The notes below the pieces were generated by a model that had not been told where the DNA came from, ran no database searches, and saw nothing but the letters and a program-made list of their open reading frames with translations. The position numbers and the translations under genes are program-made. A stretch of DNA of 64,000 nucleotides from positions 2,232,001 to 2,296,000 of the forward strand of contig CM022377.1 in the NCBI GenBank assembly GCA_011800155.1, written 5' to 3'. Positions 4,756 through 37,564 of the stretch are shown piece after piece. Numbering within the stretch: position 1 is the stretch's first letter; every line of letters starts with the position of its first letter. The stretch comes from Flammulina velutipes. Its lineage: Eukaryota; Basidiomycota; Agaricomycetes; Agaricales; Physalacriaceae.

Positions 4756-4788
4756 AATGGAATCATTGATTTAGCTCTACTCCAAAGT

Positions 4789-10600: not shown

Positions 10601-11387
10601 GTGGACCCTGAAACTTGTGCTACGTTCAGAGCGCTGGAGCACTTTCAAATGATATCGTTCATGTCAAAGGTAAGGCCTCTTGCTATCGTTTGTTTAACGA
10701 TCACGTCTCAATTAATCCCTAGGTCACGGCGTGGGAGTACTTCCATGCTGCTTGCCGCCTTAGTGATAACACGGGCACAGCTGTCCCTCCCGTATGCCTC
10801 GCTCGTCTGCCAGCAGAACGAGTCTCACTCAAATGATCTAGGATCGATACCAGAACTTCCTGCTCATGATCCGGCAGTGGAGGTACCTCAAAATGCTCAA
10901 ACACTTTGGGCGAGCAAACGATGTGTCAGGCCGAGCGGGAACCAAGGAAGGTGACCTCGCCGTACGCTGTCCAGCTTGTCCGTACGTTGGGATCAATTTA
11001 GAGGAACAGTACGTGTTGTCATTTATATTCTTTCACCTGTTAATCGTTCATTATAGAACGAACGATTACAGCGACCAGCTGTTCCTGGCCATGGACGCCA
11101 ACTTTCGACTCCAACAAAGAGGAGGAGGGAGTTCTTTACTCCGAGATCCTACCTTCAATGACGGAGCCGCTTACTTCTGCGCCGACGGACCGTTCCAGGA
11201 GTATTTGAAGGTGTTCGATAAGAACGTTACGGAGGAACGGAACAATTGTAGTCGGTACGATGCTGTAAAACTAGCGAATATGAAGGGCGGCAAAGGAACT
11301 ACAGCTACTGGGGTTGTCGCCATTGTCTGCGCACGTCATGACATGAAACGCCCCACTGCCGTTGTTAATTTAAAGAAGGGAGAACGG
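10601..11387 (+). pseudogene. KDZ transposase, fragment 1 (N-terminal part of catalytic region)
   Basis: Four exons: ~10,601-10,669, 10,723-10,791, 10,842-11,008 and 11,057-11,387, with GT...AG introns of about 50 bp. The translation matches the mushroom KDZ (Kyakuja-Dileera-Zisupton) family as I know it: TCATFRALEHFQM, then EYFHAACRLSDNTGT, then RYQNFLLMIRQWRYLKMLK, then CPACPYVGIN, then LAMDANFRLQ, then ARHDMKRP and KKGER. The LAMDANFRL segment carries an aspartate typical of the RNase H-like transposase core. The reading is interrupted at 11,387 by the gypsy 3' LTR. Removing the insert rejoins GAACG to GTATGT, a consensus 5' splice site. The N-terminus is missing upstream of 10,601. Confidence 0.85.
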
Positions 11388-13113
11388 TGATGTGCAGTGT
11401 AGAAGAACGCCACAAAAACACACACAAAACACACACTAACAAGTCAATGGTGCGATGCGGGAAAGTCCGATGTTTATAGCGGGATTTCACGTTATGGTAG
11501 CAATCGTTCGTTTTGTAATAGGTGGTCTGGGACGGGTTCTTGTTCTTTGTATCTTTGTTTTATGGGACTGTTTCTCTCTATCTTCTGCTCAAAATGCTTA
11601 TACTAGTTCGACGGGGTAACAGGGATCTGATCTTAAACTGAGTTAAGTCACAGGCCGATTGGGATGTGTGTAAAGAGACCTAATGAGGCTCTTCCCAGGC
11701 CAACAACCTTCAACCACACTAGGGAGCGGGAGCTCTGGTATCTATCTGTATAATCAGGACTCTCCAACAACTAGTCGGGGCCTGAATAGATAGCCTAGCA
11801 CAGTCTGAACCACACTTGTATGGGACTTGGGACTCCAACCAGAGTTGGTAGGTTCTTTAGATGGAATTTCCCGCGGAAACTCGGATCGTTGGAATCGCAA
11901 AGGACTTGGCTTCAACTTCTTTAATATGGGAAGTAGCTCCAATGAGTTCTTAGATCTTTGGTTCTGTTTCTTATTTCCACCTATCTAACAGTGGTTCTTT
12001 TTCTAACTAAATCTTAGAGTCTATTCCTCCAGTATATACGGCTTGTGGGCTGCGGATACGGGGGGCGTAAGCTACTGTAAATAGTACAAACGAGCTAGCT
12101 TTATAGTGTTTTCTATATACGTCTGAATAAGGATATAATACCGAGTCCGCTGGTTCGGGGGAATATTCCGATAGGATGTACGGAATATCCCTCTAATGGT
12201 GCCCTTGGCATTGCTGCCTATTCGTTCTGGCTTCTATTTGCTTTGAATCCAACCAATGGTGGCGCCGTAACTGGGTTTGCAGTGGCGCCAGGTTGTTCCT
12301 TGTGCTTGGAAGCTCCACTATTTCATCGTTTTCCACTATTATTAGCGGCCGAGTCCTGTCTAGCAGGAACTCTTAGCCTTTGTTCGTATTCTTATTTCAT
12401 ACTACGAGTCCGAGTAGTACCGACTAGGTTTGGTATACTGGACGCGTAAGTATGTTCTTAGTATCGTGTTCGGACTTTTCCGGTAGTACTCCGGAAAAGC
12501 TATCGTTGTATCTTTACGAGTTGTCGATAGTACTCGTATTGTAGGTCCTTGTAACGATTTACTTGTGGATCCCGAGAATCGATCAGGAACAGTCCACCGG
12601 AGTAAGTTGATCGGTGATCGAGCAGTATCTTTTGAAAGCCTAAAAGGTTACCCTGACTCCTGAGTCTCCTATGTAATATCCCGACGTCTGAGTAGTACGA
12701 ACATTTGGTTTGCTAGTCCAGCAAGCGTTTAACTGCTTGCTGGCGTTGCGTCTCTTTATGTAGAGTTTCCTTGTGTAAGGGTAACTCGCCGAATTCCGTT
12801 AAGTATTTCGGAGTTTCGCGCGTTCAAGTGTATTTGATCACGATGTCTCCATCGGGGTACTTTTGATGATGATATTCAAGATCGTCATGTGTGGTTTGGC
12901 TATACCTACACGCCCTTCAGCGTGTGGCGCTTTTCCGACGAATCTTAGGAGTTTTCCGGTCGTACCACGGAAACTCCTTACACTGTATCGTATACGCGTT
13001 TCGGTCTGTAACTAGAGGTTCTTGTACTCATAGGTTCGTTCTATCACTAAGAATGCTTCTTAGAATCGCAAATTTTGGGGTCTTTCGTACTTGCATTAAT
13101 ACAATGCGCATCA
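11388..13113 (-). repeat. 3' LTR of gypsy element
   Basis: This 1726-bp repeat is nearly identical to 27,024-28,762. It lacks 13 bp present in the other LTR near 27,280 and differs at a few single positions (for example 11,523 versus 27,161). Small open frames inside it are identical in both copies and have no coding features, so they are not annotated. It contains inverted repeats such as CTTTTCCGG...CCGGAAAAG at 12,475-12,499. Confidence 0.95.
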
Positions 13114-13121
13114 TCTCCCAT
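13114..13121 (-). other. Putative polypurine tract of gypsy element
   Basis: On the minus strand ATGGGAGA lies immediately upstream of the 3' LTR, the expected location for the plus-strand priming site of an LTR retrotransposon. It is short, so the call rests on position. Confidence 0.5.
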
Positions 13122-13338
13122 AGACTTATTTGATGGTGTCCGCACCATCCTGGTTCCCCTATCGTTGGATCCCTCAATATTCTTCCTGGACTCGGCTCTT
13201 GGAAAGGCCAATAGGTAGGAGGACAATTCCGCTTATTTCAACGGAATTCTCCCGGCTTTGCACGTTCCATTGCCAATATTTCTTCACTATAAAAGCAGGC
13301 TGAAAACTGTGGCGCTCTCCGTTTTATCCTTCGTTACT

Positions 13339-14969
13339 ATGCCTCCCAAGATCCCTCAATGGCACTCCATTGGTTCTTCAATCTCTGCGGAAGCCCCCAT
13401 TGCTACGCTGGAGCTCGTCCAGTATCGCCTTGCTACTGCCCCGTTGATCAACGACTTCTTGGTTAATTACTCGCTCCCGGATTCGACCAACTCCCTTATT
13501 GTCGACGCCATCGAACAGCTCACTGCCCCAGTGATGGCCTTGTTGCGTACGGTGTCTGCCAATCCGACGCCACGGGATATTCCGATTGTCGTCGTGGACA
13601 AGTTCTTTAGCAAGTTGCTGGTACGTCTTTCCGCTTTCTTTCTATGTCTCATGCTAAGATCTTTATTTATCTTCTAGCTCATCAATCAATCTCTGAAGGG
13701 AACCACCGCCGCGGAGGCTTCCTTCGAGATTTTCTCCTTCTTCTGGAATCTGCGCAACATCCTTGGGGTCTATCTTTTGGAGTTAGGCGTTAGCCCAACT
13801 CATCACCGTATCAACCTTGCGGATATGTTCACTCCAGTTCTTAATACTGTGGGTCGAGGCAAGGCTTATATCGCACCGCCTTATCCCGAGAGCCACCCCC
13901 TTCATGCTGCTTCGCGTGTAGTTCCTAAGGTCAAGGCGCCAGCTCCAGCTCCTGAGCCTACACCTGCACCCAAGCTTACTGCTAAAGCCATGCGGGCTGC
14001 CGCGAAAAAGGTATGGACTTTTCCGCTTATTCTTCGGTCTTTCTAACTTGTATCACTTTCTTAGGCTGGTAAGACTGTTAAGTCTGCCGCCGTTATCGAC
14101 GATGCCCTCGAGGCCGTTGGAGATACTGCCAACACCACCCCTACTGAGGATATCGGTAGGTTCGTTCTTGACCGGCATTTTCCACTTTGCTAAACGGACT
14201 TGCCTGGTTTCTTCAGAAATGGACGATGGTGGGTCTGAATCTGATCTTTCTGACGATGAAGATGTGAGCTTAGTCGCTTACTTCTAGGCGTCTCAAGATT
14301 GACTCAACCCCTGCAGGACTTGACCATTATTGATGGAGATGGAGTGCGCCGCAAGGACTTCCCCCCTTCTCCGGTTCGTACTTGTCTTTTTATTCTAAGG
14401 CTTGAACTAACGGCATTTCTCCTTTATTCATAGCCTGCTGAAGTCGAGGGCCCCCGTGTGGTAACTTATCTTCCCTACTCGATGATCCCAGGTATGCTGA
14501 TCACTTCTCGCGCATACCAGAAGGCCATGGAGGTTATAGGAAGTACGGTCACTTTCGTGGAACCCGCTCCTTTGCTCACTAAACGCAAAGCTACGGAAGA
14601 TGGATCTCCTCGTCCTCTTAAGAGCCTTAAGGTTGACTCCGTTCGTATTGACAACACCTTTGTCGAACAATTCATTGGAGGTGCGTTTAGTTCTTCTTAT
14701 CTTAATCTTGTACTTATCGCATTTTTCCGTGTTTCTTAGCGGGCGCTACCGCTCAGAGTTACGGAAGCTCTGTTGCTCGAGTTATCAAACAAGTCAACCG
14801 ACTCCTCGCCGCCGACGAGTTGACTGAACTCGGACCTGGTCTGGTTTCGACTGAGGTGGCGCATCGCAATGAGTTGATTAGACTCTTGAATCGTATTCAC
14901 GGCGACGTCCAGACGTTCAACCGTACCAAGGACTTGTATATCGCTACTGTCAAGTCTATGCTCGAATAG
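13339..14969 (+). CDS. Gypsy accessory gene 1, seven-exon hypothetical protein
   Basis: Exons 13,339-13,620, 14 kb region 13,678-14,010, 14,065-14,155, 14,217-14,263, 14,317-14,373, 14,434-14,680 and 14,740-14,969 join in frame with six 49-61 bp GT...AG introns. The start is MPPKIPQWHSIG. The product is about 430 residues: a helical N-terminal half, a Pro/Ala/Lys linker (APAPAPEPTPAPK), an acidic SESDLSDDED patch, a KRKATED...RPLKSLK basic stretch, and a C-terminal helix ending VKSMLE. I recognise no family. It lies between the 3' LTR and pol, antisense to the genomic RNA, so its introns would survive retrotransposition. It is fully open despite frame damage in pol. Confidence 0.7.
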
Positions 14970-15411
14970 ATATTTCCCTGTTACAACTAGGTAGTTGCCC
15001 ATCCCTTCTTTCCGGGTGATACTACTGTTTACCTATTGTGTTTCCGGGGCTCTTTATCTTTATCTTTATCTTTCTGATACTGTAGCCATTGCTTATTTGA
15101 CTTAAATATAACTGTCCCCTAAACTTCGTGTGATTTGAACTTCAAGCTAGACCCCGAAGACACTTGTGCGCCACTTCCGTGATTCCTAGCGGAATTTCGC
15201 ATGAAGTCTTCGCCGGTCTCCTTTCTTGTTCTTAGGGGTTTACAATTTTCGCTTTCCGTATTGGCAATCTTCTATAGCCTATACGTTCGTTATTTTCTTC
15301 GCCTTGACGAATACCCGACCCATTAGCCAGTCGATCATACGCCTCCTATTAGATTTGTACATCGTTTATAAGACTGAACTTTTGTAATGTCTCGGTCTTC
15401 GTCTGTCTCAG

Positions 15412-16579
15412 ATGCCTTCTCCTATCGCTTTGATTCCTCTATGGGCCAACTTCAAAATCGCCATGATTCCGGGTTTGGACAAGCGATTTTCCGAGGAGGC
15501 CTTGGACTTTTTGCAGGCTGAGACTGGTCTCGCCGTTGCTATATCGTTATATCGCACTGCTCAAGGCTTTCCTATCGTGGCCACGCCACTCAATAGCTTG
15601 GATCTTACCGCGCGGTATACCGATGCGGCTGCGGACTTGCACTTAGGTCCTGCTCGTCAGATAGACGCTCCTACGTTGAGGTTCACCCTAGGCGTAATGG
15701 TACGTCTCGGATTTTTCCTTACATTTCGCGGGTCTAACGGTCTTGATAGCAACACGCTTCTAGTTTGTGGCATTGCGAACATCCCGACTTTCGTACAGGG
15801 CAAGCCTACAACTTAGCTTCGTTGTATATCGTCTGTCTTCGATTGGTGTCCAACTTCTTTCATGGACGCACGGGAAACTGTACCCTCGATGGTCTTTCCT
15901 TCGAAGGATGGCTTTCCAAAGTATATCGCCAACCCCATATGCACTTTACGGAGTTGTACTTGGACGCTAGCGCCGATTTCATCGTGAGTTCTTTAACCTA
16001 TACGCCTTTTCCGTACTAAATCTCGGGATTTTCCATAGACCAGCGTAATGTTGGGCTATCATAGGGGAGCGCCTGACTCTTTGGGTGGGATCTTTGCCCA
16101 TCCTGAGGTCTTGGATGCTATCCCTGTCCCTCTATCTCGTATGGATGCCAGCGACGTTCAATTAGTCGCTTGGTGGCCTCGTTATCTTTCCGCTAACAAC
16201 ATTCAGCCCGAGTTTGATACTCGTCCTATTATGTATGAACGGGTCGTTACCAACGGTTATTCGCCTTTACACGATTTTCCGGCTGGGTTGGTTGACGCTA
16301 GTGACCTCAGACTTGGTCCCCACGCCGAACGCTTCACTGAGTTCGTACCAGAGCCCCATTGTGTTGCTCAACGGCGATCTAGCTCAACGCCTGAACTTGT
16401 TCCAATCAGTTCTCCAGTACCAGTGGTCAGATCTTTCGTAAGTCTTTCTGTTCGACGTCTAGTGTATTATTCTAACACCTTTCTTCTGATAGACCCACTT
16501 CAATACGCTAGGACAGACTATGTGTACCCACTGTCCCACTAGTCATCCTGCCGTCGAATGTACTCCTCCGACCCAGTAG
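15412..16579 (+). CDS. Gypsy accessory gene 2, zinc-knuckle protein
   Basis: Four exons: 15,412-15,699, 15,750-15,983, 16,039-16,437 and 16,493-16,579, with in-frame GT...AG introns of 50-56 bp. The product is about 335 residues starting MPSPIALIPLWANF. The last exon encodes CTHCPTSHPAVEC, a CX2CX3HX4C zinc knuckle of the kind found in retroelement nucleocapsids. The body (AFSSEE-like helices, FEGWLSKVYR, VAWWPRYLS) has no match I can name. It could be a second, spliced Gag-like or nucleic-acid-binding protein. It is antisense to gag-pol. An alternative start lies upstream at 15,387 in another frame. Confidence 0.65.
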
Positions 16580-17330
16580 TCGGATTTTCCGTTAAAAGTC
16601 TATCATCTTGGTGTTAGACACTTAGTCTATATCGTTTGTCGGTTATCCTATGTCGTAGCGCTATACCTTCAATTTAGACCCTTTCCTTGTTACCAAGTTC
16701 GTTCTGTGGTTCAAATTGATGGTGGCGCGGGAATTCCCGTATCTTCATCGGAGTTGAGTATTCTTCATGCTATTGCATTCGTACTCGTAGCCTCAGGTAT
16801 ATATGGCTTAAGACCTTCGTTGGCTAGTTCTTCTATGTAACTTGAGACGTACTAGCCTTAGCGTAGTCTCTAGTTATAACCAATGTTCGCGCTCCTGATA
16901 AGTCCGGAGATCGTCATGATTTATGGCGTCTCCCATTGACTTATTAGATGCTATCATACTGGTATCTTTGTTAGTCTACTAAGCTTTCATCCTAGAAGAG
17001 TCTGTTTTTCCACTTGAAAACCCGGAGAATCCCTTGTCTCAATGACTTGGTATCTCTTGTTGGTTTTCAAGCTTTTCTTTGATCTTAGTTCACACCATTT
17101 TGTAGTCAAATCAGCGTGCTCGCTATTTTTCACGGTATCGTAAATTGTATGTAAATTTTTGGCACTGAGGCCGCTAAGTCCCATGTTCGTATGAATATCG
17201 TAATATATACATATACAAGTCCGCGAAGAGGAAGAGTCCGACAAAAACCCGGCAAAGAAAACCAAGACTAAAGATTACAAATGTTAGAGGGAGCTAGGCT
17301 TCGACCTCCTTCATTTGCAAACTCCTTCCC
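16580..17330. other. Non-coding interval inside gypsy element
   Basis: About 750 bp between the tail-to-tail accessory genes 2 (plus) and 3 (minus). It contains short TTCCG/CGGAA-type repeats (16,578 and 16,730) and small frames without recognisable motifs. It probably holds the 3' ends of both transcripts. Confidence 0.4.
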
Positions 17331-19477
17331 CTAACGACGACGACTTGGTCCAGCAACGGCATTTTCCGTTGACAACCCATAGTACGTTAGGACGTTGGGA
17401 TCTCCCCAATGCCTAAGTAAATCGTTGACGGCGTCCGTGAGTCTGCCGTTTTGTTCAACCAGTTGGTCGACATCGTTTCGCAAGCCTTGGATCGTCTCAA
17501 GCAAGGCTTGAGGTCGACGTTTGACCACGTCGGATTCTGGGTCCAACTTCTCGCACTTCAACTTCATTACCTGGCAGCGTACACAGGACTTGGTCGTCGG
17601 GGTCGCGTACTTGCATTCCTTGTTTTTCTTGAGACACTCTTTGCAAAGCACTTGGGAGTACTTCCAGAGTTCGTCTTCCGGAATGGGTTCCTTCGCCTTT
17701 CTTTTGCCCTTGGCCTTGCTCGACTTCACGGCTACAGCTCCCTTTGCCGTTTTCTTCTTCTTTCTCGCAGGTCCTTCACTTTCCGACCCATCCTTGGAAT
17801 CGTCCGTTGGTTCGTCGGAGGGTTGGAAGTCGTCGTTGTTGGGCTCGAAGTCCTCATCGTTCGGCGCGAAGTCTTCGTCGTGCTGCTCATCTTCATTCTC
17901 GCCATCATTGCCACTGCTACCATCGGCGTCGCCATCTTCTACTTCGCGAGTCCTCTTCGTTCCTTTGGCTTTCGCGGGCGAATCCGGTTTTGACATCGGA
18001 GTCGACTTGACGCTAGGTTTGGGTTTGGCTGCTGGAGCCACCTTCTTACCCACTGCTTTCGTCGTCGTCTTCTTCGTCGTCTTGGCCTTCTTCTTGGAAG
18101 AAGGTGCTTCTTCATCCACGACCTCCTGTCCGGAGTCATCTTCCATTCGCGCTTGCTTTGCGCGAAAGCTCACCACTCGTATGAATGCCACCTCCGGGTC
18201 TTCTACCGGAGTTGCCGCGGGCGCTGCCATTTTCGATAGCTTTGACAGCTTTTGGTTCCCTAAGCCCTCGATTTCTTCTTGCGAAGGCCTCGCAATGGGC
18301 GGAAGGGGCATCTGCTTGGAACCTTGGGCCGGCTTAGCCATTGGAACTTTAGCAGGCTTTACCATTGCCATGGGAGGCATCTGCATCGGAGCTCGAACTG
18401 GTCGAGGTACCACTACCCTTGGACTTGGAGCCTTTGGGACTGGCATGGTTTTCGTTTTTCGTGGAGGGGGACGTGGAATCTCCGAACTTGGAGACCTTTC
18501 CGGGGTTAGCGCGGACTTTTCCTTGCGCTCCCCGGAATCTTCTTCCTCGCTCTATCGTAGATCGTATTAGCTGTAATATAGCCTTTAGAGCTTAGCTACT
18601 TACCGCTTGCTCTTTGCTCTTGGAAGAGCCTTTCCTTTGTTGTGGCTCCTCTCGAGCCTCGCTATCTTCCTGGTCCTAGGAATTCCGTTAACATTAGCGG
18701 AATTCGCTATAACCAAGTTCGAGTCTCAACCTTTTCTTGAGCAGGCTCTTCAGCTTGCTCGTCTTCTTCTTGTGGCTCATCTTGAGCCTCTTCATCTTCT
18801 TGATCCTTGTCGACGGACTTGTCGACTTGTTCTTCGCCATCGGTACTCTCATTTCCCGAGTCCTATACCAAGTCCGTTAATCATACCGGTATTTGGGTTA
18901 TCTTATTCTTACTTCTTTGCCTTTGGAACTTGTTCCTTGGACTTGGTCTTCTTCGTCGCCAACCTCTTCGTCGGTGGCATCTTTGCCTTTACCTTCAGGC
19001 GTCTAAGGTTTTCCATTGAGTTTCCCGGATTTTACCCGTTCGACTCAAGGAAACTTACCTTGACATTCTCTTCTTTGTCTTTCTTCTCGACTTTACCTTC
19101 GTCGCCACTTTCATCTTCACTTGTCTAAGTCGATTCCGTTAAATTATCGGAATCTGCCGACGTGATCTTTATCTTACCGTTACATCTGGCAACTCTTCGT
19201 ATAGTTGCCAAGCCCTTGTAAGGACTTGCTCCAACCAGTCATTGTTGCTAGCGGCCGAGTGTTTGAATTCATCGGCGGCCTTCTCGAACTGTCTCCAGAA
19301 GACCTGGTAGTCTTCCGGAACGTGGCAGACCGGCAGAGTCCGCCAATTGCCGGGAATGAAACGAAGTCGTCTGATCGCATTTTTCGAAAAGTGGCGGCGC
19401 TCGAATGCGAGCGCCTTGGGTCGGTTTTGTATTTTAAAGAAGCTAGTTGACGACATAGTATTTGAAATGGACGACAT
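17331..19477 (-). CDS. Gypsy accessory gene 3, acidic/basic protein with two-part cysteine motif
   Basis: Six exons: 19,178-19,477, 19,059-19,124, 18,913-19,002, 18,731-18,862, 18,604-18,675 and 17,331-18,551, all in phase, with introns of 50-56 bp. The product is about 625 residues. The N-terminal exon is helical (VFWRQFEKAADEF). A very acidic Glu/Asp-rich region follows, then a Pro/Met/Lys-rich segment, Lys-rich basic stretches, and another acidic stretch. Near the C-terminus is LCKECLKKNKECKY, then SCVRCQVMKLKCEK, a six-cysteine array resembling a fungal Zn-cluster DNA-binding motif. A coiled coil follows. It is in the same sense as gag-pol, so its introns imply a separate or regulated spliced transcript. 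A chromatin/DNA-binding role is inferred. Confidence 0.75.
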
Positions 19478-20080
19478 CGCGTTGATCTGTATCGTGATTT
19501 GCCAAAGTCGCGTCGCTGCGATGGTGGTTGAAGGATGAGTTCGTTTTTCTCAAAATTTCTCTTTAAGTTCACCATCACGGACCCGGTCCGGTGATCCTGT
19601 CGATCAACTCTGAAATGGAAAGGGCCATTCCGTTTCTGATGGGCCTAGCTCTTCGGAATCTTATCTTAGATTGTGGGGAATTTCCCCAACCCCGCATCGG
19701 AATGGTACCTTTTTCTAAAGGAAAGATATTCATCATTTGTACGGTTCGTATGCAGTATATCTTTAACGTTACTGCTATCTTTGTTCTTAATGATAATACA
19801 TCTTGAACGTATCGTTTGTATGTACCAAGTAAAATCGAAAATTCCTGGTAAATTCCGTTCGTTATTCGGGAATACCTCTATATCCCCCACAAGCTTTATA
19901 TGATGGTATCCCTACCATCAGCTCATGCTTTCTTGTTTAATTCGTCCATAACTTTGCCTACAGAGCCACGTATCATGTGTAGTCTCTTGAAGAACAAGTC
20001 TCCTAAGAAGCTAGGGTCTTTCCGTGAATAAAACGGAATAACCCGAAACTGCGCAATCTTGTCTTTGAGTAAGGATCCAT
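19478..20080. other. Interval between accessory gene 3 and integrase end
   Basis: A 600-bp stretch with several TTCCG...CGGAA inverted repeats (near 19,625, 19,680, 19,853 and 20,024). The integrase reading frame resumes in a different phase from about 20,085 to 19,940 on the minus strand, so part of this stretch is the broken C-terminus of pol. I see no other gene. Confidence 0.45.
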
Positions 20081-26959: not shown

Positions 26960-27000
26960 GGAACCTCAATAAGAGGGATCGTTTAAGTCAAATTTATCAC

Positions 27001-27018
27001 CCCTCGCGGTGGGTTCCA
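27001..27018 (-). other. Primer binding site of gypsy element
   Basis: On the minus strand, five bases after the 5' LTR, the sequence begins TGGAACCCACCGCGAGGG. It starts with TGG, complementary to a tRNA CCA end, at the correct position for a minus-strand primer site. I cannot name the tRNA. Confidence 0.75.
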
Positions 27019-27023
27019 AAATA

Positions 27024-28762
27024 TGATGTGCAGTGTAGAAGAACGCCACAAAAACACACACAAAACACACACTAACAAGTCAATGGTGCGATGCGGGAAA
27101 GTCCGATGTTTATAGCGGGATTTCACGTTATGGTAGCAATCGTTCGTTTTGTAATAGGTGGTATGGGACGGGTTCTTGTTCTTTGTATCTTTGTTTTATG
27201 GGACTGTTTCTCTCTATCTTCTGCTCAAAATGCTTATACTAGTTCGACGGGGTAACAGGGATCTGATCTTAAACTGAGTTCTAGTTTGCCACTAAGTCAC
27301 AGGCCGATTGGGATGTGTGTAAAGAGACCTAATGAGGCTCTTCCCAGGCCAACAACCTTCAACCACACTAGGGAGCGGGAGCTCTGGTATCTATCTGTAT
27401 AATCAGGACTCTCCAACAACTAGTCGGGGCCTGAATAGATAGCCTAGCACAGTCTGAACCACACTTGTATGGGACTTGGGACTCCAACCAGAGTTGGTAG
27501 GTTCTTTAGATGGAATTTCCCGCGGAAACTCGGATCGTTGGAATCGCAAAGGACTTGGCTTCAACTTCTTTAATATGGGAAGTAGCTCCAATGAGTTCTT
27601 AGATCTTTGGTTCTGTTTCTTATTTCCACCTATCTAACAGTGGTTCTTTTTCTAACTAAATCTTAGAGTCTATTCCTCCAGTATATACGGCTTGTGGGCT
27701 GCGGATACGGGGGGCGTAAGCTACTGTAAATAGTACAAACGAGCTAGCTTTATAGTGTTTTCTATATACGTCTGAATAAGGATATAATACCGAGTCCGCT
27801 GGTTCGGGGGAATATTCCGATAGGATGTACGGAATATCCCTCTAATGGTGCCCTTGGCATTGCTGCCTATTCGTTCTGGCTTCTATTTGCTTTGAATCCA
27901 ACCAATGGTGGCGCCGTAACTGGGTTTGCAGTGGCGCCAGGTTGTTCCTTGTGCTTGGAAGCTCCACTATTTCATCGTTTTCCACTATTATTAGCGGCCG
28001 AGTCCTGTCTAGCAGGAACTCTTAGCCTTTGTTCGTATTCTTATTTCATACTACGAGTCCGAGTAGTACCGACTAGGTTTGGTATACTGGACGCGTAAGT
28101 ATGTTCTTAGTATCGTGTTCGGACTTTTCCGGTAGTACTCCGGAAAAGCTATCGTTGTATCTTTACGAGTTGTCGATAGTACTCGTATTGTAGGTCCTTG
28201 TAACGATTTACTTGTGGATCCCGAGAATCGATCAGGAACAGTCCACCGGAGTAAGTTGATCGGTGATCGAGCAGTATCTTTTGAAAGCCTAAAAGGTTAC
28301 CCTGACTCCTGAGTCTCCTATGTAATATCCCGATGTCTGAGTAGTACGAACATTTGGTTTGCTAGTCCAGCAAGCGTTTAACTGCTTGCTGGCGTTGCGT
28401 CTCTTTATGTAGAGTTTCCTTGTGTAAGGGTAACTCGCCGAATTCCGTTAAGTATTTCGGAGTTTCGCGCGTTCAAGTGTATTTGATCACGATGTCTCCA
28501 TCGGGGTACTTTTGATGATGATATTCAAGATCGTCATGTGTGGTTTGGCTATACCTACACGCCCTTCAGCGTGTGGCGCTTTTCCGACGAATCTTAGGAG
28601 TTTTCCGGTCGTACCACGGAAACTCCTTACACTGTATCGTATACGCGTTTCGGTCTGTAACTAGAGGTTCTTGTACTCATAGGTTCGTTCTATCACTAAG
28701 AATGCTTCTTAGAATCGCAAATTTTGGGGTCTTTCGTACTTGCATTAATACAATGCGCATCA
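27024..28762 (-). repeat. 5' LTR of gypsy element
   Basis: This 1739-bp repeat drives element transcription on the minus strand. Near identity to the 3' LTR indicates a recent insertion. Its outer end abuts the KDZ sequence, where the empty site would read GAACG|GTATGT. Confidence 0.95.
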
Positions 28763-28766
28763 ACGG

Positions 28767-29199
28767 TATGTTTTTCGCGTCTCTTAAAGACTTCCTTTAA
28801 CGTCAGATTTCAGTTATGTGTTCACAGACTACGCCTTACTCAAGACACTTGCACATTCTCCCCCCGCAGATCTTGTTATATCTTACGACATCGCGTGTGT
28901 ATGGTCGAAGAATCTAGCAAAGCGTGTGGCGTCGTACGGCGACCAGTTGAAAGTCCCCGGACGGCATAACGTGAAGTTTTTAGTTCCGAAGTTTCATCTA
29001 CCGGCGCACATTGGTCCTTGCCGCTACCGGTTCTCATTCAACTGGATCCCCTTTATGGGTAGGACGGATGGCGAGGCACCGGAACGAAACTGGGCAGCAT
29101 CCAATGGTCTTGCCAGCAGCACCAAGGTGATGGGCTCTGGTTCACGGCGCGACACCTTAGATGACCACTTCGGAGATCAGAATTGGAGGAAAACTTGTC
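28767..29199 (+). pseudogene. KDZ transposase, fragment 2 (core)
   Basis: After the gypsy element, an intron remnant (TATGTTTTTCGC...TTTCAG, to 28,813) leads into YVFTDYALLKTL, then VISYDIACVWSKNL, then FLVPKFHLPAHIGPC, FSFNW, GRTDGEAPERNWA, STKVMGSGSRRDTLDDHFGDQNWRK. These are the most conserved KDZ transposase motifs: the SYDIAC aspartate, the PKFHLPAH histidines, and the DGE...ERNW glutamate that completes the RNase H-fold catalytic set. The exon ends at 29,199 at the left end of the near-palindromic element. Confidence 0.9.
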
Positions 29200-31568
29200 C
29201 ACCCTATGACATAGACCTAACTAGTTATCCAGCCCTACTAATGGGGCCAAATAACTAGTTGCCAGCTCTTGTTAAGTAGGCCATTTTGGCAGGCTAATAT
29301 GGCTGGCTGGCGGGCAGGGGGTGGGCTGGAATGGGGCGGGATGGGTCCCAAATATGGATAGGAATTGATGGGAGCATGTAGGGATTGATGGGCAGGGGGA
29401 GGGGGAGCAGGGGATGGGGAAATGTGGCCACACATAAATCCGGACCTAGGGATTGATGGGTACTGATGTCATTGATTGCCCAGGGGGATGGGGGATAGGG
29501 ATAGGGATTGTGGCACCAGGAAAATCCGGACCTAGGGTTTGATGGGGGCAGGGGATGGGGGATGGGGGCAGGGGAAATGTGGCCACAGGAAAATCCGGAC
29601 CTAGGGATTGATGGGAACTGATGGGATTGATGGGGGAGGGGATGGGGATGGGGCAGGGGATTGGGGGCAGGGGACAATTGTGGCACCAGGATAAATACTG
29701 GGCTATTGCCAGGGTATGAGGAGGGTATGGGAGAGATGATTGTAGGTTGAAAAATAAAATTCTTTCTAACTATCAGAAACATGAATGGGGATGTGGCAGC
29801 TACTGAAACCAATAATAAAACGATGTGTGGCGCATTTTTAATCGAGGAGCACATACCTCGGATCGACCTGGGGTTGTTCTAGATGTCTTCCTATTGAAAA
29901 ATGAATGTGTGCAGCACAAAGAACCATGTAAAAACACGAAGATTTGGCTGAGAAACAGGCAGAACATTATTGGAAATCCATCAAAAAGCACCAAAAAGGG
30001 AGCAGCACTTTGCCCTCGTTTGGAGGTGACCTGGAACCACTTGTAGGTCGTCCAGACACCTTTGGGGCATTGTATATGTCACTCAGTTAGGTCCCCAGGT
30101 CAACAGAACCCTTGGATATGGTCAAAATGCCAAAAACCCGGACCACACAGCTTTGGGCCACACTATCAACTTGCCATGACCTGGGGACACCTTATATTCG
30201 AAGATATATGTATATAATGCTCTAATCATGAGTTAGATGAAGTCTGGAGTGTGAAAAATGCGGTCAAAACCTGGGTGTATGATGTTAAAATCAATAGTCC
30301 ACCACTCAGATGTGTGATAGTTGGGGTGATTCTTGCTGTAGAAGGAGGGGATATGAATTATTGTACCATTTATATTCGCATTTTGACACACTGGGGGAAC
30401 CTCTGGGGTGCTAATACATCATCTATAATGATAATAGAACACATTGGGACGACCCAGAGGTCAGGAGAAGTTGATGGTATGTGTGCTTTCTTGGGGGACG
30501 ACCGCATTTTTCACACTCCAGACTTCATCTAACTCATGATTAGAGCATTATATACATATATCTTCGAATATAAGGTGTCCCCAGGTCATGGCAAGTTGAT
30601 AGTGTGGCCCAAAGCTGTGTGGTCCGGGTTTTTGGCATTTTGACCATATCCAAGGGTTCTGTTGACCTGGGGACCTAACTGAGTGACATATACAATGCCC
30701 CAAAGGTGTCTGGACGACCTACAAGTGGTTCCAGGTCACCTCCAAACGAGGGCAAAGTGCTGCTCCCTTTTTGGTGCTTTTTGATGGATTTCCAATAATG
30801 TTCTGCCTGTTTCTCAGCCAAATCTTCGTGTTTTTACATGGTTCTTTGTGCTGCACACATTCATTTTTCAATAGGAAGACATCTAGAACAACCCCAGGTC
30901 GATCCGAGGTATGTGCTCCTCGATTAAAAATGCGCCACACATCGTTTTATTATTGGTTTCAGTAGCTGCCACATCCCCATTCATGTTTCTGATAGTTAGA
31001 AAGAATTTTATTTTTCAACCTACAATCATCTCTCCCATACCCTCCTCATACCCTGGCAATAGCCCAGTATTTATCCTGGTGCCACAATTGTCCCCTGCCC
31101 CCAATCCCCCTGCCCCCATCCCCCATCCCCTCCCCCATCAATCCCATCAGTTCCCATCAATCCCTAGGTCCGGATTTTCCTGTGGCCACATTTCCCCTGC
31201 CCCCATCCCCCATCCCCTGCCCCCATCAAACCCTAGGTCCGGATTTTCCTGGTGCCACAATCCCTATCCCTATCCCCCATCCCCCTGGGCAATCAATGAC
31301 ATCAGTACCCATCAATCCCTAGGTCCGGATTTATGTGTGGCCACATTTCCCCATCCCCTGCTCCCCCTCCCCCTGCCCATCAATCCCTACATGCTCCCAT
31401 CAATTCCTATCCATATTTGGGACCCATCCCGCCCCATTCCAGCCCACCCCCTGCCCGCCAGCCAGCCATATTAGCCTGCCAAAATGGCCTACTTAACAAG
31501 AGCTGGCAACTAGTTATTTGGCCCCATTAGTAGGGCTGGATAACTAGTTAGGTCTATGTCATAGGGTG
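29200..31568. mobile_element. Near-palindromic (fold-back) element 1 in KDZ gene
   Basis: Two arms, about 29,200-30,270 and 30,497-31,568, are inverted copies of each other with very few differences around a ~225-bp spacer. Ends are CACCCTATGACATAG. A perfect 7-bp target duplication, ACTTGTC, flanks it (29,193-29,199 and 31,569-31,575). Each arm holds several copies of a unit containing TCCGGACCTAGGGATTGATG and one TGTGTGGCGCA motif (29,824). No transposase is encoded; Pro-rich open frames in the arms are by-products of the repeats. It is a non-autonomous long-TIR element related to the one at 37,740-40,306. Confidence 0.9.
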
Positions 31569-33105
31569 ACTTGTCTTATTCGTGCGTCGCACAGCTGAAC
31601 TGAGGGATAGAATGTGCTCAAATTATCCCTTAGCTGCTGTCTTGCTCTCGAAGCTTCGCGACGCTGTCGAAAATAGAGCGACACAAGTCGTCTCATTTCT
31701 AGGGTTCCAGGAATCCTTGGAATCTACCACAGAGGTTCAGAACTGGCGGACGATGGTTCTCAATTGGGAAAAGTATCCTCAGAATATGTCCATAGATAAC
31801 CCATTTGAACCGAAGACACGAGGTACGTCTAATTATTCTCAGTGCTTTCCTCTCACTGAAGAGTGTCACAAATCAGAGCTGAAAGATAGCACTGTCCAGC
31901 TCACCCTGGCAAGAGAAGAGGCTGGGCAAACTTCTACGGAATATATTCGCCACTCCATTGTTGGCCCTGCGCAGTTTATCACTATGGCTTTGGATCTCCA
32001 AAGTAGCCAGTACGACCATCTCACCTCATACGTCGATATCCTTTCACTCATCATGAATAGGTTGCGGATGAAGAGGGATGCACAGGAGCTAAAGAAACAG
32101 GCTCGAGTCACTGACCTCCAGAACGCCCGATTTCAGGAAAAACTCAATCGACTTCAGCGTCGTGTAGACGCCTTCAAGGAAATCCAAGGCATCTATATGC
32201 CCAGCGCCACTGTTCGTCGAGCTGCTGAAGATCGAATTAGCTCCGGAACGACAGAGCAACCCTATGAACTTCCTCTTCTCTTCCCGTCCGACATGTGTGC
32301 TGTTCACAACAAACTAGATGCTATCCTCATCTCTATAGAGTTCAGACTCCGCGAAGCCCGTGCGGAGGACGCCCTAGCCCGACTGCGCGACCATCTTCTC
32401 TTGCGTAGCAAAATGTACGCCATCAAGGATCGTCAGGTTCGTGGCCAGGTACTCTCGACAAGAGCCAGTAGCACGTTGCAGGCCGTCAACGCCAAAATCG
32501 AGGAAGATGCCCAACACTATCGCATTCATTACAGTGCACTGGAGGCCCTCGACAGATTTAGGGAGACCCATACCTGGAGACTCAACCTGTTTCCTCTACG
32601 CTCGGAGGACATGAGGACGTTAGAAGAGTCGGATGAATCAGAGGGTAGGAGGACGTTGTCCTGGATTTGGATAAGCAAAGTCGACATTTCCTCGGAGGCT
32701 GGCATGCAGGAAGGTGTGTGCTCGCTCACCTTATGTACCCATCTTCTCCTAATTAACATCTAAGCTTTACGTATCGAATGGTGTAAGTCGCGCGCGCGCG
32801 CTCAGCGTTGGCAAGAAGAGTGCACGATACTCCGCAAAGAAATGACACGCGTGATAAAGTCTCTCCAATACGACATACAGCGATGGCAAGACTTCGCCGC
32901 TGATGACGGTGCAGAGGTTATGCGAGTGGTGGACCGGTTCTCTGCCGGTTCTAGGGCGTACGCCTACCGTCAATGTGCTCTTAGACAACGAATGCTGGAA
33001 CACGCCCAACACATTTTTTCGCAAGCGCCGGGCGACGAGAAGGTGGTTGTGGGTGTATTACCTTCTGATATAGTCGATGTAACAGTAGATCTAGACACAA
33101 TTTAA
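31569..33105 (+). pseudogene. KDZ transposase, fragment 3 (C-terminal part)
   Basis: Coding resumes after the palindromic insert. If the empty site is an intron (ACTT|GTCTTA...CCCTTAG, about 60 bp) the reading joins NWRKT to SAVLLSKLRDAVENR, matching KDZ proteins. The body reads YDHLTSYVDILSLIMNRLRMK, then NRLQRRVDAFKEIQGIYMP, then ILISIEFRLREARAEDALARL, then EGRRTLSWIW. A final exon (from about 32,767) encodes RIEWCKSRARAQRWQEE and ends at 33,105. This helical C-terminal half is typical of KDZ transposases. Apart from the insertions the fragment has no stop or frameshift, so gene inactivation is recent. Confidence 0.88.
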
Positions 33106-33234
33106 GCGCCTTGTAAGGGACAAGACTTTATTCAGGCTCTGGGTACAAGAATATGAAGCACTATTACACAAGAAGAGCTGGGTGACACAAGAAAAGATAA
33201 ACAAATAACAAGCACTACAAGCATCTACAAAAAG

Positions 33235-34739
33235 CTACACACGCCTACGTTTAACCTCCACCTGAGAGAAGGCTTCGTCGTCGTGCTCCTTCATCTGGAA
33301 GGAAAAAATTCAGTACATTGCGCTCCTCGCCTGACGATGAACACACTTACCGAGTGTCTCTTCCTTCTAGGAGGACCTGCCTTAGGGGGAACATCTGGAG
33401 CTATGGCTACCAGCATCTCCGGAGGAGGGAGTTCCAGGTTGTCCTCCTCATCGGTGGAGAGAGTATAAGTTGATAGCTTGAAGACCTGTCGGCGAACGCG
33501 TCGTTTGGTGCCGGGCAGGGGCAGAGGCGTCGGGGATAGATTTTGAATGCGAGGGCTACGATGGGGTCCCGTCTTAGCTTGCAGTTGGTCCATGCGCGGA
33601 CGAGCTGCACGAGCGACGGGAGCTTTCGTGGGTGCCGTGGCTGGCGAGGGGACTCCCGAAGGCAGCGTTGATGCGGGTGAGGTGGCAGGCTGTGTCGGTG
33701 GGAAGGGAGAACTACCACGACGAGGAGGGAACGTGTCCTTCAGGGAGTGCGTCCAAGAATCCATCTCGCGGAAATGTTCTTCACCCATTTTGAGTATTGT
33801 GTCCGTGTCTTCGTTCTCATAATCCTCGGGGAGTGGAAGGCGACGTGGAGGTGTGGATAGAAGCAAGGACGGAGGAGGTCGAGGCTTTAGCGATGGGATC
33901 ACGGTGACCATACGCTTAGGTCTACCAGTGGCTGTTACATATCTTTCCTCGCCCACGGGTCTCAGTCGATGGGGGGGAAACGCGGAGGCCGCCTGCGACG
34001 ACTCAGTGGAGGAGGAGGAGGGAGGAGGAGGAGGAGGAGGAGGAGGAGGAGGAGGAGGAGGAGGGGGAGGAGCAGGCGTTGACTGATCATCCGTCGTTTC
34101 TAAACAGGGTCCGTGAATGGTGGGAGGGCGAGATGGTGGTGTACGAGTAGCAACGGGACGTGCACTCTTGCGGGCCAGTAGGCCAGCGTTCCGAATCATC
34201 TGGGTGGTGGATAATACTCGGTCGACGGATTCCGCTGGTTTGCCGAGCGGGTTGGTCGATTTCTTCTCAGTACGCGGAGGTGGAGGAAATGGCCCAGAGA
34301 TCGAGCCTTTTGTTTCGGAGGACGAAGCTTGAACTTCTTTTTCGTCGGCTTGTCGCTTATAGTCTTCCCGCATCTTCTGGTTGGCGGTAGCGTGAAGGAC
34401 CGAGCGGATGTGCTGTAGTAATTTCGTCACATCCTCCGTTACGCAGGGTACAAGGTAACTCACGATGTACTCCTCATACCGCCATTTCAAGTAGCTAGGG
34501 AAGTCGGTCGGATCCAGAGCCTGGAGGCGGGGGATGGCGTCTTGATATTTGAGAAATACGGCATCGATTAGGCGCAAGACGTTTGGTACGCCCTGCAGTA
34601 GAGCATTGCGATACTGACTGCTATAACGGCCAGCGAAAGTATATTCCGCCGGCGTAATCTGTCCTAATGTCAGTCCTAGAGGTCACCACATCACTTAGAC
34701 ACTGACCTGGACTTCCTGGCTGATAGAGTAACTGGTCAT
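33235..34739 (-). CDS. AGRY-motif proline-rich protein, kit gene (right copy)
   Basis: Three exons: 34,707-34,739, 33,351-34,658 and 33,295-removed intron then 33,235-33,294. It starts MTSYSISQEVQ and continues ITPAEYTFAGRYSSQYRN, a motif shared with the gene at 604-1188. The N-terminal ~110 residues are helical (VLRLIDAVFLKYQDAIPRL, YLKWRYEEYIVSYLVPC). A run of about 16 prolines, encoded by a GGA/TCC microsatellite at 34,010-34,070, divides the protein. The rest is Pro/Arg/Ser-rich and disordered. It ends VKRRRV, a basic tail. The gene is convergent with the KDZ transposase (129 bp apart). The function is unknown. Confidence 0.65.
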
Positions 34740-34884
34740 AGAGTTAGAATCAGGAAAAAAATGCGAAAGTGTGATCTTGAGGTTGTGAGGAACGAAGGCC
34801 AATCAGCCAGGACGAGGAAAGGCTAACTGTACAGGACCAAAACTCCGCTCGGCCGGCAGAGTCCTGCACGACGACGAAGTGATA

Positions 34885-34975
34885 TATGAAGACTCATGCA
34901 TGGAGGGCATGGAGGACCTCATGCATGGAGGGCAGGAAAGACCTCATGCATGGAGGGCAGGGCGAAGCACTTGGT
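34885..34975. repeat. ATGCATG array near TET/JBP gene end
   Basis: Three copies of a unit containing CTCATGCATGGAGGGCA lie in tandem between the AGRY gene and the end of the TET/JBP gene. They share the ATGCATG core with arrays at 41.7, 46.9, 47.7, 48.4 and 50.1 kb. Confidence 0.8.
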
Positions 34976-35046
34976 GTCATGGCTTAGGAAAAATATTGTC
35001 ATTTGACGTGCGGCTAGGGGGTACGGAGGGATTGACTTAGCGAGTT

Positions 35047-36490
35047 TTACTCGGATAGATATACAGCGCCGTCACGCTCGAGGGCTTCTCGATCAGCGCG
35101 CTTGAGCAACGTCGCCTCAGCAAAACAAGTAAATACCACCCGTCTGCCAACCAGTGGGGAGCTGCAATGGGCTAAGTAACGGGCGCGCACTGCCAAAACC
35201 TGCCCAGGGCGGATGGGAAACTTGACACCCAGTTGAGGAGCGCAGAACTCTCCTCCCGTCCAATCGCCTACGGCCACCACCCAAGCAAAAAACTCTAAAT
35301 CGTCGGAGTAATCCAAATGGAGCCATTCGCTGGCCCCTTCCTTCACGGCCACAGCGAAGAAACAAGGCCCTAAATCGACGGGTGGACGACACTCAAAGGC
35401 TTCCTTAACACGTGCTATCCTCAACGCACGCGCTCGTGCCCTACGGTAGCCGTGTCAGTCAAGAAGAACATGTTAGACGGAAGAGAAGGCGTACCGTACA
35501 CCGCGCTCGTACATCTGGGGAAACTCTTCCCGCATGATGTTTTCGATTTTCTTCGCCACGACCTCTTTGATATAGAGAAGTAACGTGTCCAAGGCCACCA
35601 GTGTGCTGGCTTTTTGGATTCGGGTTTCTGTAGTCAGGAGTGGCCCTTCCGTGTTGCTGAATTCCCACAGGCCGAAGTGCCAGGCGCGCGTAGCTGAGCG
35701 CCCGTCGTGCTTGCCCATGTGACGAGGTTTGGTTTGGACTAGGGCGTCGAACCGAAGAAGGAGTTCACGACACTCATCCGGTTTCAGAAAGCAAGCGTAA
35801 CGCTTGACTAGAACGGGATTGGAACATGTAAGGCCGTCCCGTTCATCCGCCTGGACCATGGCGGGAGTGAGACTGTATTCGACTGTCGTGTCGTCTTCAG
35901 GCCAAGCGTTGGGGAGAGCAGACGGGATACCAGGGAATTCGTCTGCAATAGTTGCCCGCACCAGGCGTTGGTTTTTGCGAATGTGAAGAAAACGGTTGGG
36001 GTGTTCGTCTACTTCGAGGCGAGCTAGGATACATCAGTTGGCTGCAACCCTTTGTTCAAGAACCGTGTCTACCTGTACGCTTTAGTCTAACGGTCATGTC
36101 GCGGTCTAGGTGTCGTTGAAGGCGCTCTGGCCGACGTTCCGGTTTATTAGCGCTGCGACGTGTCTTCTTGCGCGGGCGACCCCCTACCATTGAATCGTTA
36201 ACGGAGGACGGAGGACGAACTAACTGGAATGTACCGGATACATCTGAGAGTGGGGGGTCACGGTGGTCGTCCATGTCCGAGAAGGTCGGACGGTGATGGT
36301 GGGTAGAAACGTGTAGAGGGTGAGACGAGGCCAGGGTCGGCTGGCTTAACAGAGCGGCCTCCGCTTCCCGGCGCCCCTGTGGGTCTAAGAAATCGTCTTG
36401 GTCGACGGAGCTCTTAGACCACGTCGTCGTCGTGGGGTAGAGGTTGGGTGAAGCCGCGCCAGTGACGAGCTCCCCTCTTCGACCTTGCAT
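35047..36490 (-). CDS. TET/JBP-family 2-oxoglutarate/Fe(II) dioxygenase
   Basis: Three exons: 36,073-36,490, 35,495-36,023 and 35,047-35,440, with 49- and 54-bp introns; about 445 residues. The N-terminus is basic and disordered (GGRPRKKTRR). The catalytic domain is in the last two exons. GPCFFAVAV leads to EWLHLDYSDD, which holds the HxD iron ligands. GDWTGGEFCAPQLG and IRPGQVLAV follow, then YLAHCSS with the distal histidine and GRRVVFTCF with the 2OG-binding arginine. This is the signature of fungal TET/JBP enzymes, which oxidise 5-methylcytosine (or thymine in JBP). All key residues are present, so it could be active. Linkage to a KDZ transposase fits published basidiomycete cases. Confidence 0.88.
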
Positions 36491-36662
36491 GATGTAGCCG
36501 TGCCAGTGCCGTGCTCCTATGCGGGGGCCCCTTCGCTCGTTGCGTCATCGTGTTCACGCCGGTCAGAAAGTGCGGTGAAGAGAGGTGTTATAAACGACTA
36601 GGTACGCAGTTCCTGCAAAAAAAATCAGCAGGATTCTTGACCGACGGAAGGGGGCTCACCGA

Positions 36663-37111
36663 TTAACGATCTTCTACGCTGTCGTCTACCTCTATCTCCG
36701 TAAGGCCTCTCCTCTGCTGAAGCTGCAGCTTTCTTTTGCTCGACTTTCCCATCTCCACCCAATACAAATCCTCTTCACTGTATTCCTCTGGTTTCTTGAG
36801 GTGCGCCACACGACACAATGCCGGCGGGTTCAGGTAGTGTCGACGACCCAGCTCGTTCATCAAAAGACGAAGGCGGTGACGGGCTCGGTAGGTGGCTGCG
36901 TGCTTAGCGTGTTGCCGACAGAATTCTTCTTGCTGGTCAGCTGGAAGCTCTTTCTGTTGAGCCCTCTTTCTGGGGTACGACTGAGCGACCTCGCAGAGGT
37001 CAAAGGACACACTCACCTTCGCATTCGCTCCCTTGCCTGCAGGTTCTTCTTTTCTCGTCGTTCGAGAAGACGGGCTCCCTCAGAGATCGGTTCCTCCTCT
37101 AGTAGGGCCAT
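36663..37111 (-). CDS. Basic helical protein, kit gene (right copy)
   Basis: Two exons, 37,017-37,111 and 36,663-36,969, joined over a 47-bp GTGAGT...CCCCAG intron. The spliced N-terminus reads MALLEEEPISEGARLLERRE, then NLQARERMRR joined to KRAQQKELPADQ. The region HAKHAATYRARHRLRLLMNELGRR is strongly basic and helical, like the first part of the gene at 4086-4755. It is about 130 residues, small and probably nuclear. It lies upstream of the TET/JBP gene on the same strand, with 172 bp between them. The specific function is unknown. Confidence 0.55.
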
Positions 37112-37560
37112 TCCTCGACGACGGAGGGTGAGCAGCAAAATAAGTGGTTTGTTTGGTCCTGCGTGCCTAGCCGGCTTTCAGAGCTTGCGTGGTGAGTTCG
37201 CCCACGGTTACATGGTGAGTTCGCCCTCTTTAAACGTCAAGAACGGCTCTCTCACCTTCAACAAGACAAGGAAATAAAGGAGAAAAGGGACAGTTTCCCT
37301 CCGTTCGAAGCCTAGACGAAAAGAGACGATGATCCTGAGGCCACGCCCGCGACACCATTGTCTTTCTGTTCCCTTAGGCTAATTAAGTTTCATCAAACCA
37401 CTCTTTCGTGCACTTTCCTGTGGATCCTTGAAACCTCCCGCCTTACTTCTCTTACTTTAGAATAAACTATTAGATGAGGCTAAGCTAGCGTAGGGCGTCG
37501 TTACAGGAGCACAGTAGCTTTGCGACGTCGAAGAAAAGGAAAGGAAGTGGACCACTTCAA
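37112..37560. other. Intergenic, no gene recognised
   Basis: About 450 bp upstream of the basic gene. It should include that gene's promoter. No convincing open frame or repeat. Confidence 0.4.
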
Positions 37561-37564
37561 AAAA

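What the first reader, a model, noticed from the sequence alone, without database searches (positions are those of the whole stretch)
10601..37111. KDZ transposase linked to an apparently active TET/JBP dioxygenase and helper genes
The window shows a KDZ transposase (SYDIAC, PKFHLPAH and DGE...ERNW motifs) 2 kb from a TET/JBP enzyme with all iron and 2OG ligands. KDZ-TET/JBP linkage is established in basidiomycetes. The inference here is that SIM-RING, Cauli_VI-like, basic, AGRY and large modular genes belong to the same mobile unit. That would be a transposon carrying a DNA-modification enzyme, a SUMO-directed E3 and a hybrid-binding protein.
Basis: partly seen in the sequence, partly recalled or inferred. 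Interest (0 to 1): 0.85.

Follow-up and report, generated by a model that had tools for sequence, protein, structure and literature searches.

The report
Multi-gene fungal transposon carrying TET enzyme
A fungal jumping gene of the KDZ type moves as one long block that carries, besides its transposase, a DNA-demethylase-like enzyme and several conserved helper genes; the copy in this window is broken up by other jumping genes, but sister copies with intact ends show that the block moves as a unit.

Summary
The core idea holds; the details need redrawing. The window copy is a wreck: its KDZ gene is cut by a 17.4-kb LTR retrotransposon, a palindromic element and, apparently, a 38.6-kb gap beyond which the N-terminus lies (C10:2203540). 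Genes between 13.1 and 27.0 kb are retrotransposon interior, not KDZ cargo. Five sister copies of this KDZ subfamily in the same genome share exact ends (GAACCTATACC...CTTAGGTGGTG), and 5 of 5 have perfect 7-bp target-site duplications at unrelated sites. The least interrupted is 19,508 bp and holds a two-repeat protein, KDZ, AGRY, a Cauli_VI-like/basic gene, TET/JBP and a long HMG-like gene: one transposon. Genes are under purifying selection (dN/dS 0.04-0.27 where estimable). Genome-wide, helper families hug KDZ genes: AGRY 6 of 6 loci, Cauli_VI 17 of 22 (within 10 kb), HMG-like 60 of 69 and SIM-RING 8 of 10 (within 15 kb). SIM-RING was detected in none of the five sister copies. KDZ-TET transposons with 7-bp duplications are known; the bounded multi-gene kit appears new in what I could read. 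Helper roles are inference, and the TET lacks CcTET's Asp337.

The parts
10577..11387 (+). KDZ transposase piece (rest of the CxC2 region and first half of the KDZ core); a candidate for its N-terminal piece lies at C10:2203540-2203791, outside the window
   Evidence: Pfam KDZ 1.9e-17; tblastx to sister copy C; N-terminal candidate 58% identical, same contig and strand; CxC2 in copy C 8.7e-34
11388..28762 (-). LTR retrotransposon (Ty3-type by gene order, my reading) inserted in the KDZ gene; not KDZ cargo
   Evidence: LTRs 11388-13113 and 27024-28762; RT RNase H, aspartyl protease, integrase H2C2 by Pfam, zinc knuckle below cut-off; related copies on C13, C5, C18, C9
28763..29199 (+). KDZ transposase, second half of the core (SYDIAC, PKFHLPAH, DGE..ERNW)
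   Evidence: Pfam KDZ 1.7e-38
29200..31568 (.). palindromic element P1 (arms 99.7% complementary over 1069 columns), ends CACCC..GGGTG, 7-bp duplication ACTTGTC
31569..33102 (+). KDZ transposase C-terminal region
   Evidence: 58-69% identical pieces at the five sister KDZ genes; tblastx
33294..34682 (-). AGRY gene, tail-to-tail with KDZ
   Evidence: homologues found only at the 6 loci of this KDZ subfamily; selection between C and D/E/F
35050..36544 (-). TET/JBP dioxygenase (ORF pieces 36544-36073, 36023-35495, 35440-35050); place and orientation differ from the sister copies
36666..37739 (-). gene X, 3' part: basic C-terminal domain
   Evidence: tblastx to copies C, D, E; dN/dS C vs D/E/F 0.22-0.27
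37740..40306 (.). palindromic element P2 inside gene X, 7-bp duplication AAGGGAA
40307..41200 (-). gene X, 5' part: RNase H1 N-terminal (Cauli_VI) domain
   Evidence: spliced model hits PF01693, 22.7 bits, cut-off 21; the unspliced ORF did not
41929..43005 (+). SIM - coiled coil - RING gene (IDLT motif and coil read by eye; RING by Pfam on exons joined by eye)
43433..46370 (-). gene Y: long protein, weak HMG-box match, conserved C-terminal domain; may start further right, up to 46753 (by eye)
   Evidence: tblastx to C, D, E; HMG_box_2 E 0.024, below cut-off
48225..48362 (+). last, weak homology to copy C (46 aa, 41%); right end of the window copy not found
   Evidence: end search without success
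607..9618 (.). second helper set, left of the KDZ piece and not part of this element by my reading: AGRY-motif ORF (-), SIM-RING (-), Cauli_VI (-), Y-type gene 6613-9618 (+)
   Evidence: Cauli_VI 1e-7; RING 4e-8; AGRY likeness here is by motif only, not tested

Best explanation
The window holds a decayed copy of a large cut-and-paste DNA transposon of the KDZ class. Sister copies with intact ends in the same genome show what it was: a 19.5-kb element with fixed ends (no perfect terminal inverted repeat, only a weak inverted resemblance) and 7-bp target-site duplications, carrying a KDZ transposase with a CxC2 domain and conserved helper genes: two-repeat protein LG, AGRY, Cauli_VI-like/basic X, TET/JBP, HMG-like Y and further conserved coding stretches. 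SHOWN: co-mobility of what lies between the ends; purifying selection; genome-wide linkage of the helper families to KDZ genes; damage of the window copy by a retrotransposon and two palindromic elements. INFERRED: that the KDZ N-terminus at C10:2203540 belongs to this copy and that other KDZ elements entered between; that the KDZ protein cuts at the ends with a 7-bp stagger; that TET oxidises modified bases on the element to relieve silencing; that the Cauli_VI domain binds RNA:DNA hybrids; that SIM-RING (window copy and other KDZ loci) acts on SUMO-marked silencing or repair proteins; that Y binds or bends DNA. The kit would be an anti-silencing and transposition set.
For: GAACCTATACCGTAGAC occurs exactly at 5 places in the genome, the left ends of the five copies; the right end is shared; 5 of 5 perfect 7-bp duplications CTTATTT, AGAATAC, GCTGTGG, GTACAGT, AAATACT with different flanks; copies B and C are 99.76% identical over 10,580 columns at different sites. 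AGRY: 11 hits at 6 loci, all tail-to-tail, 2.0-4.1 kb from the KDZ core. TET exon: 7 hits at 6 loci, all at these elements. dN/dS 0.04-0.27 for LG, KDZ, AGRY, X, TET and the Y C-terminus where dS is finite. Cauli_VI 17 of 22 loci 5.3-9.7 kb upstream of a KDZ on the same strand; Y-type 60 of 69 and SIM-RING 8 of 10 within 15 kb, against 5.9% of the genome.
Against: No ends or duplication found for the window copy. TET in the window is inverted and displaced relative to the sister copies; LG was not seen in the window or in the 3-kb stretch at the candidate N-terminus; no RING hit in the five sister copies. One AGRY piece of copy E has an in-frame stop, and the N-terminal piece of Y found no match at 1e-4. 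Exceptions to linkage: 5 of 22 Cauli_VI, 9 of 69 Y and 2 of 10 RING loci are farther away. Helper functions are untested; two predicted structures were poor (pLDDT 63 and 55). TET lacks CcTET Asp337. CpG is not depleted in the stretches tested except P1, so methylation-driven decay is not visible.
Confidence: 0.85

Rival explanations
1. Chance clustering: KDZ and the helper families are repeats that pile up in the same gene-poor regions, and the helpers are not cargo.
For: KDZ copies are clustered; the window shows nested insertions; some helper loci lie far from KDZ.
Against: Shared ends and 5 of 5 duplications; fixed order and orientation (AGRY 6 of 6 tail-to-tail; the 17 near Cauli_VI loci all upstream, same strand); purifying selection.
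Confidence: 0.05
2. The copies arose by segmental duplication of a host gene cluster with a KDZ gene, not by transposition.
For: B and C are 99.76% identical over 10.6 kb; several other KDZ loci have identical scores and look like larger duplications.
Against: Similarity stops at the same base on both sides and each of the five copies has its own 7-bp duplication of a different sequence.
Confidence: 0.03
3. The helper genes are passengers without a role in transposition or silencing.
For: Kojima 2025 (PMC12730594, section 4.1 read) describes TET genes as passively transferred between transposons; the TET here lacks CcTET Asp337.
Against: dN/dS 0.04-0.27 between subfamilies and recurrence of the families beside many KDZ loci.
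Confidence: 0.25

Closest known systems
TET+ Kyakuja transposons of Agaricomycetes (Kojima 2025, PMC12730594; first 3 of 7 text parts, sections 3.4 and 4.1, figure legends and search passages read)
   Same: KDZ-class transposase plus HxD-type TET/JBP in one element; 7-bp duplications. The paper also reports extra genes in other TET+ transposons (alpha-kinase in IS3EU, a third protein in Harbinger)
   Different: Reported Kyakuja ends are CA..TG without TIRs, here GA..TG with a weak inverted resemblance; Asp337 reported conserved there, Ala or Thr here; no Cauli_VI, SIM-RING or AGRY gene in the parts I read (supplements not read)
KDZ elements of Iyer et al. 2014 (PNAS; not held; recalled from its abstract only)
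   Same: TET/JBP genes linked to KDZ; recalled: additional proteins including a divergent HMG domain
   Different: Here a bounded 19.5-kb element with ends and duplications; hybrid-binding, SIM-RING, AGRY and two-repeat genes are not recalled from it
Cryptococcus KDZ1-3 (PMC12810828, 12 search passages read)
   Same: KDZ transposase, elements of about 9-11 kb, observed transposition
   Different: TIRs of 139-241 bp, duplications of 4-8 bp, CxC1 domain; helper genes not mentioned in the passages read
Helitron helpo1.3 of Pleurotus ostreatus (PMC4289320, two passages read)
   Same: A Cauli_VI (PF01693) gene carried by a fungal transposon
   Different: A Helitron; 'KDZ' has 0 occurrences in that text

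Membership tests
KDZ superfamily transposon | KDZ catalytic domain | tested here: met
   PF18758 1.9e-17 and 1.7e-38
KDZ superfamily transposon | CxC cysteine cluster N-terminal to the core | tested here: met
   CxC2 8.7e-34 in sister copy C; in the window this region is incomplete
Kyakuja lineage | 7-bp target-site duplication | tested here: met
   5 of 5 sister copies; window copy: ends not found
Kyakuja lineage | no terminal inverted repeats | tested here: inconclusive
   no perfect repeat, but the ends match in register at 16 of 30 positions in copies B and C (7 of 5000 shuffles reach it) and 13 of 30 in D and F (130-136 of 5000)
Kyakuja lineage | CA..TG termini | tested here: not met
   GA..TG
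Kyakuja lineage | position in the KDZ transposase phylogeny | not tested
   no tree built; no set of named lineages at hand
TET/JBP dioxygenase | HxD...H...R ligand set | tested here: met
TET/JBP dioxygenase | Pfam Tet_JBP above cut-off | tested here: not met
   18.7 bits against 34.9 for one exon; the spliced model was not scanned; three whole-genome hits also below
AG-type TET (CcTET-like) | Asp337 equivalent | tested here: not met
   Ala in the window, Thr in copy C
SUMO-targeted ubiquitin ligase | SIM plus RING | tested here: inconclusive
   RING 2.8e-9 on exons joined by eye; SIM motif by eye only
RNase H1 N-terminal (Cauli_VI) protein | PF01693 above cut-off | tested here: met
   22.7 bits, cut-off 21, window copy only; copies C and D gave no hit

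The most novel reading that the evidence does not exclude
KDZ transposons in this fungus are modular counter-silencing machines: a transposase travelling with an exchangeable kit (base-oxidising TET, RNA:DNA-hybrid-binding protein, SUMO-directed ubiquitin ligase, HMG-like architectural protein, AGRY and two-repeat proteins) that disarms host silencing, with different subfamilies shuffling the same modules.
Probability: 0.4. Interest if true: 0.8.

Novelty: new variant of a known kind. Interest (0 to 1): 0.62.

Why it matters
It turns a gene-neighbourhood correlation (KDZ near TET) into a bounded, multi-gene mobile unit with exact ends, so that each helper gene can be tested for a role in mobility or silencing. 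A hybrid-binding protein and a SIM-RING gene recurring beside KDZ transposases would point to R-loops and SUMO as steps that fungal transposons must overcome, beyond DNA methylation.

Tried and rejected
Rejected: that the genes between 13.1 and 27.0 kb are KDZ cargo (they lie between LTRs); that 31.6-33.1 kb is a separate gene (KDZ C-terminus); segmental duplication (own duplication at each of the five sites). No ends found for the window copy. No clean duplication found at the gap that splits the KDZ gene; only 3 kb at its far side were fetched, the 38.6-kb gap itself was not read outside the window. Protein search with AGRY: none at E <= 0.001; LG: two relatives, one nearly identical to copy D by eye; a KDZ exon: 24 relatives, none named. 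Structures of LG and of the Y C-terminus were poor; no fold search was made. Rfam at gathering scores: 0 matches. Literature: the listings (titles and starts of abstracts) show no paper on such a kit; find in PMC8889193 gave no KDZ passage, PMC8290104 passages mention KDZ TIR motifs; Iyer 2014 is not held. Control: the pattern read backwards gave 7 + 7 matches at up to 2 mismatches, against 4 + 3 for the pattern, of which 5 are exact. Binomial P values treat loci as independent; recent duplicates inflate them. The KDZ search reported 166 matches, not all listed; I collapsed the listed rows by hand to 89 loci. One second-exon row was dropped from 70 Y hits, two adjacent C2 rows merged in 23 Cauli_VI hits. 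TET counts join. I first called the ends free of inverted repeats; one search shows a weak resemblance, so that claim was withdrawn.
Full report
What was claimed.

What is there. The window is C10:2232001-2296000 of a 38.1-Mb genome in 23 contigs; that it is a basidiomycete is my inference from its KDZ content. The KDZ gene is real but in pieces. From 11388 to 28762 lies an LTR retrotransposon on the minus strand, with LTRs of 1726 and 1739 bp differing by 2 mismatches and a 13-column gap, and with protease, RNase H and integrase domains by Pfam. From 29200 to 31568 lies a palindromic element with a perfect 7-bp duplication. The KDZ C-terminus continues at 31569-33102; its pieces are 58-69% identical to the same part of five sister KDZ genes. 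The best candidate for the N-terminus is C10:2203540-2203791, on the same strand, 58% identical to that of copy C, the sixth hit after those of the five sister copies; homology there stops 38.6 kb before it resumes in the window. The gap contains other KDZ hits and, in the window, a second helper set at 0.6-9.6 kb.

Right of KDZ. AGRY (33294-34682, minus) is tail-to-tail with KDZ. TET (35050-36544, minus) has an open spliced model of 374 aa, 44% identical to that of copy C. Gene X runs from 41.2 down to 36.7 kb and is interrupted by a second palindromic element (37740-40306; duplication AAGGGAA); its 5' part has a Cauli_VI domain once spliced (22.7 bits, cut-off 21) and its 3' part is the 'basic' gene. 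SIM-RING follows at 41.9-43.0 kb (plus; RING 2.8e-9 on exons joined by eye), then gene Y from 43.4 to at least 46.4 kb (minus), with HMG-box matches below cut-off.

Sister copies. Searches of the genome found AGRY at six loci (11 hits) and the TET exon at six loci (7 hits), all at KDZ genes of one subfamily: the window copy and five others, here B (C5:2319493-2394231), C (C3:3059194-3078701), D (C5:356312-400571), E (C1:3676929-3725027) and F (C1:1610484-1643863). Similarity of B, C, D and F begins at the same base; GAACCTATACCGTAGAC occurs exactly at five places, the left ends of B-F, E included. It ends at the same base on the right. Each copy has its own perfect 7-bp duplication: CTTATTT, AGAATAC, GCTGTGG, GTACAGT, AAATACT. 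Copy C is 19,508 bp; the others span 33 to 75 kb, with other sequence in between. This is direct evidence that what lies between the ends moves together. The two ends are not perfect inverted repeats, but match in register more than shuffles do in copies B and C, less clearly in D and F.

Content of copy C. In order: two-repeat protein LG (minus), KDZ (plus, with CxC2), AGRY (minus), X (minus), further stretches with three-base periodicity at 15.65-16.25 and 16.37-16.61 kb of the 30-kb stretch, TET (plus), Y (minus), and a conserved stretch up to the right end. dN/dS between C and D, E or F is 0.04-0.27 for LG, KDZ, AGRY, X, TET and the Y C-terminus (Y: D and E only) wherever dS is finite; some comparisons, and nearly all with the window copy, are saturated; one AGRY piece of E has a stop and the N-terminal Y piece found no match. 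The genome-wide RING search has no hit in B-F, and I saw no LG in the window or next to the candidate N-terminus.

Genome-wide linkage. With 89 KDZ loci (a lower bound), 4.2% of the genome lies within 10 kb and 5.9% within 15 kb. Cauli_VI: 17 of 22 loci within 10 kb, all 17 upstream of KDZ on the same strand; none of the 22 lies in B-F, so this is about other KDZ loci. Y-type C-terminal domain: 60 of 69 loci within 15 kb, 46 of them upstream in opposite orientation. SIM-RING: 8 of 10 within 15 kb, the window's two included. TET: 7 of 9 within 15 kb; one of the other two lies inside copy D. AGRY: 6 of 6. P values are rough because duplicates are not independent.

TET caveat. In a profile search of the PDB the only matches up to E 10 were two CcTET sequences and CMD1, at E 0.06-0.13. 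The aligned core keeps the H, D and distal H, but CcTET Asp337 is Ala in the window and Thr in copy C. Kojima 2025 (parts read) reports Asp337 as essential for 5mC activity of CcTET and conserved in AG-type Kyakuja TETs. Activity and substrate are therefore open.

Known and new. KDZ elements with TET and 7-bp duplications are known (Kojima 2025), and other TET+ transposons with an extra gene too; Iyer 2014 is recalled to mention extra proteins including an HMG domain. What I did not find in the listings and passages seen is the bounded multi-gene kit with Cauli_VI-like, AGRY and LG genes, and SIM-RING beside KDZ. Supplementary tables were not read, so priority cannot be asserted.

Mechanism. 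Best reading: cut-and-paste by KDZ at fixed ends with a 7-bp stagger, with TET and other helpers countering host silencing. Only co-mobility, conservation and linkage are shown; the roles are inferred from domain families.

Noticed in passing
window 29200-31568, 37740-40306; copy B, C5:2342533-2345182: Three palindromic elements, each with ends CACCC..GGGTG and a perfect 7-bp duplication (ACTTGTC, AAGGGAA, CACGCCC). The duplication length matches the KDZ element; they may be non-autonomous elements mobilised by a KDZ transposase.
   Followed up: partly
window 13114-18499: The LTR retrotransposon carries 5.4 kb between its 3' LTR and the point where the C18 copy resumes; it holds a basic Cys-containing ORF (17334-18551, minus) and plus-strand ORFs, one of which was scanned without a Pfam match. 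Part of it is shared by the C13 and C5 copies.
   Followed up: partly
C1:3686193-3722128 around copy E: 13.9 kb of copy E are flanked by inverted copies of one sequence (about 40 nt compared), apparently each with a KDZ and a Y-type gene.
   Followed up: no
C8:945-959 kb: Another KDZ locus lines up KDZ(-), Cauli_VI(-), Y(+) and a Pfam TET_JBP hit(-) within 14 kb, suggesting a different arrangement of the same modules.
   Followed up: no
window 53459-55468 and 57971-59958: A 2-kb direct repeat (91.9% identical, spacing about 4.5 kb), outside the element; not identified.
   Followed up: no
window 50091-50307: Tandem array of a 23-bp unit (9.4 copies, CATGCATGACTTTTGTACAGGCT).
   Followed up: no
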